Assembly: GCF_029917005.1 (NCBI RefSeq)
Contig: NZ_CP123967.1
Span: 2,542,001 to 2,606,000 of the forward strand
Direction: 5' to 3'
Length of the DNA: 64,000 nt
Source: Tessaracoccus lacteus
GTDB lineage: Bacteria; Actinomycetota; Actinomycetes; Propionibacteriales; Propionibacteriaceae
A model generated the notes under the pieces. The model saw only the letters and a list, made by a program, of their open reading frames with translations, had not been told where the DNA came from and made no database searches. How positions within the stretch are numbered: position 1 is the first letter of the stretch; every line of letters begins with the position of its first letter. Below are positions 12,078 to 14,351 of the stretch, piece by piece. The position numbers and the translations under genes were made by a program.

Positions 12078-12117
12078 CCCGACGGCGGCCTGCCACGTGC
12101 GGGCCACCACCAGAGAC

Positions 12118-12213
12118 GCCACCCTTATCGACAAACGCCTCCCTTCTTCACACATGCCACCGCCAGGGCGGTGGCATGTGTCGAGAGCGGTAGCGTCGGT
12201 CGATAAGGGTGGC
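12118..12213 (+). terminator. Nested double hairpin downstream of helicase
   Basis: The outer arms GCCACCCTTATCGAC (12118-12132) and GTCGATAAGGGTGGC (12199-12213) are exact 15-bp complements. Inside them CACATGCCACCGCC (12151-12164) pairs exactly with GGCGGTGGCATGTG (12167-12180). The inner hairpin could terminate helicase transcription. The 96-bp nested arrangement is larger than a terminator needs and might be a miniature palindromic element. No T-run follows. Confidence 0.55.
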
Positions 12214-12237
12214 ATCTTTGCCTTCTCGCGGAGCCGG

Positions 12238-12574
12238 GTCTCCGAGCCTGTCGTGGAGCCTTGAGCGAAGCGAAAGGACCCAGCCCGACGTCGGCCCCGG
12301 GCAACCCTTCGACGAGCTCAGGGAACCGAGTGGGGCTCAGGCCCTTCGACAAGCTCAGGGAACCGAGTGGGGCTCAGGCCCTTCGACAGGCTCAGGGAAC
12401 CGAGTGGGGCTCAGGCCCTTCGACGGACTTTGCAACGGATCTCCGAGCCTGTCGAGGAGCCTTGAGCGAAGCGAAAGGACCCAGCCCGACGTCGGCCCCG
12501 GGCAACCCTTCGACAAGCTCAGGGAACCGAGGTAGGTCCCGGGCAACCCTTCGACAAGCTCAGGGCCCTTCGAC
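12238..12574. repeat. REP-like TTCGACAAGCTCAGG repeat cluster, left of IS
   Basis: Several copies of CCCTTCGACAAGCTCAGGG and variants, separated by GAACCGAGTGGGGCTCAGG. They are interspersed with two copies of a longer block (CTCCGAGCCTGTCG, GGAGCCTTGAGCGAAGCG, AAAGGACCCAGCCCGACG). Spacing is irregular. Part of this block, 12391-12523, is repeated almost exactly at 14040-14172. Such TTCGACAAGCTCAGG palindromes are widespread in high-GC genomes (recollection). Confidence 0.85.
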
Positions 12575-12599
12575 GCTGATACTTGTTAGGTCCTCGTCT

Positions 12600-12777
12600 C
12601 GGCGGGGTGTGGCTCTCCCTTCGACTGACTTCGTGTCTTGGGTTTGATCTGTCCACTCCGCCCGGGGCGGGGACACATTCTCGGAGTCCTGCCCGGGGAC
12701 CCGTGGCATGTCTTGATAGGAGCCTGGGGCTTGATTGGCAAGCCGCCGTCAGCGTCCTGACTGCCTGGTCCCCGAGC
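12600..12777 (+). ncRNA. Candidate IS110 bridge RNA in left non-coding end
   Basis: IS110 elements transcribe a bridge RNA from the long non-coding end, with one loop matching the target and one matching the donor junction. Here CCCTTCGAC (12617-12625) equals the nine bases left of the insertion point, fitting a left target guide. ATAGGAGC (12716-12723) equals 14026-14033 near the element's right end, fitting a left donor guide. GTCAGC (12748-12753) can pair, with one G:T, with the left-end start GCTGAT (12575-12580), fitting a right donor guide. GTCTTG (12635-12640) pairs with only the first four bases of CAAGCTC, so the right target guide is weak. GC-rich stems such as CCGCCCGGGGCGGGG lie between. 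RNA ends are guesses. Confidence 0.6.
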
Positions 12778-12810
12778 AGGTGTCACCCCCCTTGAAAGGC
12801 GACACCTCAC

Positions 12811-14019
12811 ATGATGCCAACCCATCCATCCACAGTGGTAGCGGGAGTCGATACCCATCTCGCCACCCACCACGTCGCGGTCCTCGACCACACCACCGGG
12901 GCACTCCTCGGCGACCTGGAGATCGAGACCAGTCTCACCGGGTACCGCCAGCTGCTGGACTTCGTCACTTCGTTCGGGACGGTCGCACTGGTCGGGGTCG
13001 AGGGAACCTCGTCGTATGGGGCGGGCCTGTCCCGGTTCCTGACCCGGGCCGGGATCGCAGTGCGTGAGGTGATCCGCCCGAAACGCGCCGCCCGCAGACT
13101 CCATGGCAAGACCGACCCGTTGGACGCGATCCTGGCCGCCCGCACCCTCCTGACCGGCGAGACCCTCCCCCTGCCGAAACCCGGCACCGGCAATGTTGAA
13201 GCGATCCGGGTCCTCCTGACGGCGCGGGAGTCCGCGGTCAAGGCCCGCACCCAGGCCATCGTCCAACTCAAAAGCCTGCTCGTGACCGCCCCGGACCAGG
13301 TCCGCGACACCTACCGCCGACTCACTGGGAAGGCCCTCCACGCGAAGCTGGCCGCCTGCCGACCCCACGGCCCCGTCGACCAGTCCTCCACCATGACCGC
13401 GCTGCGGTCCCTGGCGCGACGGATCCGTGACCTCGACGACGAGATCAACCTCCTCAACCCCCAGCTGCAGACCCTGGTCGCCCAGACAGCACCCGGCGTC
13501 CTCGATCTCGTCGGGGTCGGGGTGATCTCCGCCGCCCAACTGCTGGTCACCGTCGGCGACGACCCGACCCGGATCCACTCGAAGGCAGCGTTCGCGAAAC
13601 TCTGCGGCGTCGCCCCGATCCCCGCCTCCTCCGGCAAAACCCACCGGATGCGCCTCAACCGCGGCGGAGACCGACGCGCGAACCGGGCCCTACACACCAT
13701 CGCCCTGGCCAGAGCCCGCATCGATCCTGACACGATCGCCTACCTCGCGAAGAAACAAGCAGAAGGCAAAACCCGCCGCGAAGCGACCCGCTGCCTCAAG
13801 CGCTACATCTCCCACCTGATCATCACCGCGATCTGGACCCCACCCGTGGTCCCACCCATCAACGACCTCAGACCCCTCCGCCACGCCAAAGGCCTCACCA
13901 CCACCCAAGCCGGCCACGCACTCGGCGTCTGGCCAGCCCGCATCTCCGGCATCGAACGCGGAACACTGCGCAACGACACCCTCACCACCCGCTACAGAGA
14001 ATGGCTCACAACCGCTTGA
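12811..14019 (+). CDS. IS110-family transposase with C-terminal XRE-like HTH
   Basis: 402 residues. The N-terminal RuvC-like DEDD domain shows GVDTH (D14), VGVEGTSSYG (E64) and KTDPLDA (D102, D105). The Tnp20 domain follows (LVGVGVISAAQL, then KLCGVAPIPASSGK, where the catalytic serine lies). After about residue 345 the sequence becomes LRPLRHAKGLTTTQAGHALG followed by VWPARISGIERGTLRNDTLT, a Cro/C1-type helix-turn-helix not part of the standard IS110 transposase. ATG 12811 is followed directly by a second ATG at 12814. The GAAAGG ribosome site lies inside an inverted repeat, AGGTGTC (12778-12784) / GACACCT (12801-12807), which could limit translation. The frame is intact, so the element may be active. 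Confidence 0.93.
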   Translation: MMPTHPSTVVAGVDTHLATHHVAVLDHTTGALLGDLEIETSLTGYRQLLDFVTSFGTVALVGVEGTSSYGAGLSRFLTRAGIAVREVIRPKRAARRLHGKTDPLDAILAARTLLTGETLPLPKPGTGNVEAIRVLLTARESAVKARTQAIVQLKSLLVTAPDQVRDTYRRLTGKALHAKLAACRPHGPVDQSSTMTALRSLARRIRDLDDEINLLNPQLQTLVAQTAPGVLDLVGVGVISAAQLLVTVGDDPTRIHSKAAFAKLCGVAPIPASSGKTHRMRLNRGGDRRANRALHTIALARARIDPDTIAYLAKKQAEGKTRREATRCLKRYISHLIITAIWTPPVVPPINDLRPLRHAKGLTTTQAGHALGVWPARISGIERGTLRNDTLTTRYREWLTTA

Positions 14020-14036
14020 CACCACATAGGAGCATC

Positions 14037-14300
14037 AAGCTCAGGGCACCGAGTGGGGCTCAGGCCCTTCGACGGACTTTGCAACGGATCTCCGAGCCTG
14101 TCGAGGAGCCTTGAGCGAAGCGAAAGGACCCAGCCCGACGTCGGGCCCGGGCAACCCTTCGACAAGCTCAGGTCAGCCCTGGACACCCTTCGACAAGCTC
14201 AGGGCCCTTCGACAAGCTCAGGGAACCGGGTCAGCCCTGAACACCCTTCGACAAGCTCAGGGCCCTTCGACAAGCTCAGGGAACCGGGTTGGCTCAGGGA
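14037..14300. repeat. REP-like TTCGACAAGCTCAGG repeat cluster, right of IS
   Basis: Continuation of the left cluster, including the right half of the split target repeat at 14037-14046. Bases 14040-14172 repeat 12391-12523 with about two mismatches. More TTCGACAAGCTCAGG and GGTTGGCTCAGGGAACCGG units follow, up to about 50 bases before the serpin stop codon. This fills the 332-base gap 14020-14351; there is no gene in it. Confidence 0.85.
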
Positions 14301-14351
14301 ACCGGGGTTGGCTCAGGGAACCGGAACCGGGGCCGGAGAGGGAGCCGCGGA

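What the first reader, a model, noticed from the sequence alone, without database searches (positions are those of the whole stretch)
12575..12810. Bridge RNA with target and donor guides visible in the sequence
Within the 236-base left end, nine bases at 12617-12625 match the target's left half, eight bases at 12716-12723 match the right end of the element, and six bases at 12748-12753 can pair with the element's first six bases. Their order (target loop, then donor loop) agrees with described IS110 bridge RNAs. The right target guide is weak, which leaves room for an unusual guide geometry.
Basis: partly seen in the sequence, partly recalled or inferred. Interest (0 to 1): 0.8.

Follow-up and report, generated by a model that had tools for sequence, protein, structure and literature searches.

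The report
IS110 bridge RNA aimed at REP repeats
A small jumping gene carries a guide RNA whose two loops spell out both its own ends and the bacterium's most common intergenic repeat, so that all six copies in this genome landed in that repeat; this is a clear new example of the recently described bridge-RNA mechanism, not a new mechanism.

Summary
Window 12575-14036 is a 1,462-bp IS110-group insertion sequence, and its left end encodes a two-loop bridge RNA (about 12590-12780). LTG, LDG and RDG are at the stated coordinates. The "weak" right target guide is not weak. Homologues fix its position at 12640-12646 (GGGUUUG), where it pairs 7/7 with target CAAGCTC through five Watson-Crick and two G-U/T wobble pairs. 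The pairing can run to 11/11 (12636-12646), but homologues do not support the extension. So the guide geometry is ordinary.

Six identical copies in the genome all sit in CCCTTCGAC|A(A/G)GCTCAGGG, a REP-like repeat with 279 exact copies. Across 30 related bridge RNAs the guides change with the flanks (LTG, RTG and donor-loop handshake base: 0 of 20,000 shuffles), and both loop stems covary. A relative in another genus (52-53% aa) keeps the same 7-nt RTG, has a different LTG (GGUCUCGAC), and sits in that genome's own repeat (178 copies, absent here).

One detail differs from IS621. Target and donor share only one core base: target AC, donor TC, with position 8 read by handshake pairs.

Verdict: new member of a known kind, with a possible variant core. 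Nothing was tested experimentally.

The parts
12575..14036 (+). IS110-group insertion sequence, 1,462 bp; the boundary is ambiguous by one shared C (12574/14036)
   Evidence: six identical copies with different outer flanks define the ends
12566..12574 (+). left target half CCCTTCGAC (positions 1-9, target core A8 C9)
   Evidence: identical in all six copies; half of the 19-nt repeat
14037..14046 (+). right target half AAGCTCAGGG (positions 10-19)
   Evidence: AAGCTCAGGG in five copies, AGGCTCAGGG in one
12575..12580 (+). right donor (left end of the element), GCTGAT, read by the RDG
   Evidence: RDG and left end covary at positions 10-14 in 21 elements, 4.71 vs 2.93, 0 of 20,000 shuffles
12578..12583 (+). 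candidate -10 box GATACT, paired with the right-end TTGACA only in the circular form (18-nt spacer)
   Evidence: sequence; right-end TTGAC lies at a fixed distance from the end in 26 of 34 homologues, and the others lacked a readable right end or -35
12590..12780 (+). predicted bridge RNA (about 190 nt), extent inferred from promoter and fold
   Evidence: folds; homologues
12590..12674 (+). target-binding loop stem and internal loop
   Evidence: 13-pair inner helix 95.5% paired, 11 pairs with double-sided changes; cognate arms -33.8 vs -19.0 kcal/mol
12617..12625 (+). left target guide CCCUUCGAC (9 nt)
12640..12646 (+). right target guide GGGUUUG, pairs with CAAGCTC (5 Watson-Crick, 2 wobble); may extend to 12636
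   Evidence: position fixed by alignment to 33 homologues; RTG-RT covariation at positions 10-14
12647..12648 (+). target-loop handshake guide AU, complementary to donor T8 and A7
   Evidence: A in 26 of 34 and U in 22 of 34 homologues; donor ATC in 25 of 26
12688..12780 (+). donor-binding loop stem and internal loop
   Evidence: folds; cognate arms -34.3 vs -24.0 kcal/mol, 0 of 20,000 shuffles
12716..12723 (+). left donor guide AUAGGAGC, same letters as the right end 14026-14033
   Evidence: the right end is nearly invariant, so covariation cannot test it
12748..12754 (+). right donor guide GUCAGCG, pairs with C9 and GCTGAT
12755..12756 (+). donor-loop handshake guide UC, complementary to target A8 and G7
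   Evidence: base opposite target position 7 is complementary in 27 of 30 (G-C 19, C-G 5, A-T 3), 0 of 20,000 shuffles
12811..14019 (+). IS110 RNA-guided recombinase, 402 aa, DEDD and Transposase_20 domains plus a C-terminal HTH-like segment
14016..14036 (+). right end: TTGACA (candidate -35) then CCAC ATAGGAGC ATC; left donor with core T8 C9

Best explanation
The left end of this IS110-group element encodes a bridge RNA. In the excised circle, the right-end TTGACA and the left-end GATACT come together as a promoter and the RNA is made (inferred). The recombinase binds it. [quoted passage not shown] The donor loop reads the circle junction ATAGGAGCATC^GCTGAT through the LDG and RDG. Top strands are cut after the shared C and exchanged. 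Handshake bases then pair the target loop with donor A7 T8 and the donor loop with target G7 A8, and the element is inserted without target duplication. Complementarity, conservation, covariation and insertion sites are shown here. Transcription, binding, cleavage and exchange are inferred from IS621.
For: The recombinase matches NCBIfam 'IS110 family RNA-guided transposase' at 186.7 bits (cut-off 140). Six of six identical copies sit at the same point of the repeat. All four guides are present and ordered as in IS621 (PMC11208160). Guides covary with the flanks: LTG, RTG, RDG and donor-loop handshake, each 0 of 20,000 shuffles. The two-loop fold covaries. A relative with the same RTG and a different LTG sits in the different repeat of its own host. 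A candidate split promoter is present.
Against: No transcript, binding or transposition data. All six copies carry the same RNA, so the genome itself tests only one guide. LDG-RE pairing cannot be tested by covariation because the right end is nearly invariant, and LDG position 2 is mismatched in several relatives. Some relatives match poorly (L012, L045, L053, L111, L112), and L027/L032/L034 copies match their guide at only 5-7 of 9 LTG positions. Another 11-mer in the left end (12723) pairs 10/11 with the right target by chance.
Confidence: 0.94

Rival explanations
1. The recombinase protein itself recognises the repeat, and CCCTTCGAC in the left end is a captured piece of the flanking repeat without function.
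For: The genome holds 395 copies of CCCTTCGAC, so captured flank is conceivable; the recombinase clade carries an HTH-like C-terminus.
Against: In 30 related elements the letters at this aligned place change with the target actually occupied, and the separate RTG does so too. Captured repeats would not sit at a fixed place inside a covarying stem-loop in elements that target other sequences.
Confidence: 0.03
2. The left end is only a regulatory leader or antisense-controlled 5' UTR of the transposase (as described for ISPpu9), and the complementarity is incidental.
For: A hairpin GGTGTC/GACACC encloses an AAAGG ribosome-binding-like site just before the ATG (sequence); ISPpu9 has a regulated 5' UTR and small RNAs (abstract of PMC8450116).
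Against: Four guides in register and their covariation with DNA outside the element are not expected from a leader. The two roles are not exclusive.
Confidence: 0.02
3. It is a bridge RNA with an unusual geometry that lacks a proper right target guide, as the reader left open.
For: Strict Watson-Crick matching of the right half is poor.
Against: The alignment to homologues puts the RTG at 12640-12646, and with wobbles it pairs 7/7, the longest RTG run of the set when extended.
Confidence: 0.03

Closest known systems
IS621 (IS110 group, Escherichia coli)
   Same: DEDD/Transposase_20 recombinase; bridge RNA in the left end; order LTG, RTG, LDG, RDG; 9-nt LTG; insertion into REP elements; candidate -35 in RE and -10 in LE; handshake bases AU after the RTG and a donor-loop handshake base complementary to target position 7 (PMC11208160, PMC11208158)
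   Different: shared core is the single base C9 (target AC, donor TC) rather than an identical CT dinucleotide; RTG pairs from position 9 rather than 8 and uses wobbles; recombinase has a C-terminal HTH-like segment
ISPpu9, ISPpu10 and ISPa11 (IS110 family, Pseudomonas)
   Same: all copies in REP sequences (7/7, 7/7 and 6/6 in PMC1525189), like 6/6 here
   Different: other hosts and REP families; sequences not compared here
ISEc21/ISMch6 and ISEc11/ISXne4 (natural redirection of guide RNA, PMC11187229)
   Same: related elements whose guide RNA changed together with the target, as for this element and the G109 element
   Different: in ISEc11/ISXne4 the target-matching bases as a whole differ (only 3 of 13 target positions alike); here the RTG is kept and only the LTG differs, and both targets are abundant host repeats
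IS110 elements of Paenarthrobacter aurescens TC1 plasmids (L106, L107, 50% aa identity)
   Same: same RNA anatomy, LTG AAAAAC matching the left flank, handshake base changed to U opposite target A7
   Different: different target; whether these are the catalogued ISAar29 was not established

Membership tests
[quoted passage not shown]
   both above cut-off; NCBIfam transpos_IS110 186.7 bits vs cut-off 140
IS110 family, IS110 group (bridge RNA elements) | long non-coding end upstream of the recombinase gene (left end), unlike IS1111 with a long right end | tested here: met
   236 nt on the left, 17 nt on the right of the coding region
IS110 family, IS110 group (bridge RNA elements) | conserved two-loop RNA in the left end | tested here: met
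IS110 family, IS110 group (bridge RNA elements) | LTG and RTG complementary to bottom and top strands of the target, covarying with it | tested here: met
IS110 family, IS110 group (bridge RNA elements) | LDG and RDG complementary to the RE-LE junction | tested here: met
   RDG covaries with the left end; LDG matches but covariation is not testable
IS110 family, IS110 group (bridge RNA elements) | insertion without target duplication, around a short core | tested here: met
   flanks rejoin to the 19-nt repeat CCCTTCGACAAGCTCAGGG, a family present 279 times; a neighbouring unit of the array in L002 is an empty copy
IS110 family, IS110 group (bridge RNA elements) | RNA expressed and required for recombination | not testable with these tools
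   no transcript or assay data
IS621 subtype | identical CT core dinucleotide in target and donor | tested here: not met
   target AC in 27 of 30, donor TC in 26 of 26 readable right ends
IS1111 group | long right end and subterminal inverted repeats | tested here: not met
   right end is 17 nt after the stop codon; subterminal repeats were not searched separately
REP (repetitive extragenic palindrome) target | short palindrome-like repeat in high copy, mostly extragenic | tested here: inconclusive
   279 exact copies, 145 and 134 per strand, in arrays; the ends CCC..GGG are complementary but the palindrome is imperfect, and genic versus intergenic position was not counted genome-wide

The most novel reading that the evidence does not exclude
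This actinobacterial-centred clade uses bridge RNAs with a one-base shared core: target AC and donor TC share only C9, and the base before it has been turned from a core base into a handshake base that pairs only after strand exchange. Such elements would show that bridge recombination does not need identical core dinucleotides, because the RNA holds the exchanged strands.
Probability: 0.4. Interest if true: 0.55.

Novelty: new member of a known kind. Interest (0 to 1): 0.4.

Why it matters
It gives a fully readable natural bridge RNA from an actinobacterium, outside the Escherichia coli model. It shows how such a guide tolerates the natural variety of a host repeat: U-U in the RTG faces the two purines that vary, and 276 of 279 repeats have purines there. 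A second element in another genus keeps the same RTG and a different LTG and sits in that host's own repeat, which makes natural retargeting between repeat families directly testable. The one-base shared core, if real, widens the sequences that bridge recombinases could join.

Tried and rejected
Rfam gathering search of the window: nothing, as no matching family reached threshold. The donor-loop covariance model R1 captured only 8 pairs because MAFFT misaligned the outer stem, so it was not used; a partner-swap test of stem arms was used instead. phmmer found no solved IS110 structure at E 0.01, so catalytic residues were not mapped on a structure. A text search for the repeat sequence in papers found nothing. 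I considered the RTG to be 11 nt long, but positions 15-18 show no covariation signal in homologues, so only 7 nt are claimed, and position 15 rests on this element alone. I considered the RTG to be needed for site choice within this genome; 292 of 395 LTG sites are RTG-compatible, so 6 of 6 is not significant.

Full report
What is there. Window 12575-14036 is an insertion sequence of 1,462 bp. Its gene (12811-14019, 402 aa) matches PF01548 and PF02371 and NCBIfam 'IS110 family RNA-guided transposase'. The genome, a single 3.05-Mb contig, holds six copies of it, identical over the 1,457 bases compared. All six have CCCTTCGAC on the left and AAGCTCAGGG (five) or AGGCTCAGGG (one) on the right. 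Joining the flanks gives CCCTTCGAC(A/G)(A/G)GCTCAGGG. The family CCCTTCGACNNGCTCAGGG occurs 145 and 134 times on the two strands, with zero matches to the reversed control, and 276 of 279 copies have purines at the two variable places. In the window it lies in tandem arrays on both sides of the element.

The observation. The nine-base left target guide and the eight-base left donor guide are each unlikely by chance (7 and 1 of 2000 shuffles). The six-base right donor guide alone is not (720 of 2000); together with the next three bases it pairs 9/9 with the left junction GACGCTGAT (61 of 2000).

The right target guide. Aligning 34 left ends fixes its place: it ends at the G of UUUG|AUCUGUC. Here that reads GGGUUUG (12640-12646). 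Antiparallel to target C9-A-A-G-C-T-C15 it forms five Watson-Crick pairs and two wobbles (G12-U, T14-G). Extended to 12636 it forms 11 of 11, but positions 15-18 show no covariation in homologues, so the extension is not claimed. The two U's opposite A10 and A11 can also pair with G, which fits the 276 purine-purine repeats and the one copy in AGGCTCAGGG. Wobble-type guide pairing has precedent in IS621 (rG:dT, PMC11208160).

Covariation with the target. For 30 bridge RNAs, guides were read from fixed alignment columns. The element edge was placed from left-end motifs, with one-base corrections from right-donor-guide pairing for L036, L047 and L054. Cognate LTG-LT identity is 6.70 of 9 versus 3.82 for swapped partners; over positions 1-6 it is 4.10 versus 1.75. 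RTG-RT pairing over positions 10-14 is 3.75 versus 2.17 (24 elements). Dereplicated sets give the same result. No shuffle (20,000 for LTG, handshake, RTG run length and Watson-Crick RTG; 5,000 for the RTG length series) reached the observed values. Per position the signal covers LTG 1-8 and RTG 10-14, and the RDG covaries with the left end at 10-13. The donor-loop base after GU is complementary to target position 7 in 27 of 30 (G-C 19, C-G 5, A-T 3). The IS621 structural study calls this handshake pairing and found it by covariation (PMC11208158).

Fold. Single-sequence folding gives two hairpins with the guides in or beside internal loops (z -3.0 and -2.5). On the alignment, 91.9% of cells pair, 20 of 25 pairs have changes on both sides, and sliding the partners by 1-3 columns drops pairing to 33-44%. 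Swapping stem arms between elements weakens both stems (target loop -33.8 to -19.0 kcal/mol, donor loop -34.3 to -24.0), with no shuffle as good.

Retargeting. In genome G109 (same family, other genus) three copies of an element 52-53% identical in protein have the same seven-base RTG but LTG GGUCUCGAC, and sit in GGTCTCGAC|AAGCTCGACC. G109 has 178 exact copies of GGTCTCGACNNGCTCGACC; the window's genome has none. Conversely, the purine-purine form of the CCCTTCGAC repeat is absent from G109. Each element is thus fitted to an abundant repeat of its own host. Natural redirection of guides is already known (PMC11187229, read), and so is REP targeting by IS110 elements (PMC1525189).

Core. In IS621 target and donor share CT, cut after T9 (PMC11208158). 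Here the target has A8 C9 (AC in 27 of 30 related elements) and the donor T8 C9 (26 of 26 readable right ends). Only C is shared. The RNA base facing position 8 in the target loop is A in 26 of 34, which pairs with the donor's T, not with the target's A. The base facing position 8 in the donor loop is U, which pairs with the target's A. So position 8 behaves as a handshake position. This is inference from sequence, and the published record may contain such cores that I could not see (figures are not held).

Expression. The right end has TTGACA (14016-14021) and the left end GATACT (12578-12583). In the circle they would be 18 bases apart. TTGAC at a fixed distance from the right end is found in 26 of 34 homologues; the rest lacked a readable right end or -35. 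This parallels IS621, whose promoter forms at the RE-LE junction. It is not tested.

Verdict. The one correction is that the right target guide is a normal one, hidden by wobble pairs. It is a new member of a known kind, with a possible variant core.

Noticed in passing
window 12811-14019, residues 353-386 of the protein; also L064, L043, L100: The recombinase clade carries a C-terminal helix-turn-helix-like segment (HTH_31) beyond the Transposase_20 domain; above the Pfam cut-off in L064 (30.6 vs 27), below it here (25.0). Possible extra DNA or promoter binding.
   Followed up: partly
window 12779-12806: Hairpin GGTGTC...GACACC directly before the recombinase ATG encloses an AAAGG ribosome-binding-like site; may limit translation.
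   Followed up: no
window 12235-12565 and 14037-14320: Tandem arrays of CCCTTCGACRRGCTCAGGG units (37-bp spacing and 96-bp units) between a DEAD-box helicase-like gene and a serpin-like gene (gene names from the translations, not searched).
   Followed up: partly
genus of the window: The CCCTTCGACNNGCTCAGGG repeat is very unevenly spread in the genus: 279, 149 and 165 copies in three genomes, 47 and 14 in two more, and none to two in the other 34.
   Followed up: no
window 12111-12220: 54-nt inverted repeat (81% complementary, 2-nt gap) after the helicase-like gene, carrying GCCACCCTTATCGAC; perhaps a terminator or another repeat element.
   Followed up: no
L007-L010 (own genome): Four more distant IS110 elements (33-37% aa identity) in the same genome; L007 lies inside what may be a transporter gene. 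Their guides were not analysed.
   Followed up: no
L027, L030, L032, L034 (genome G008): Four nearly identical relatives occupy four rather different sites sharing mainly (T/C)GAC before the element, so specificity in this branch seems looser.
   Followed up: partly
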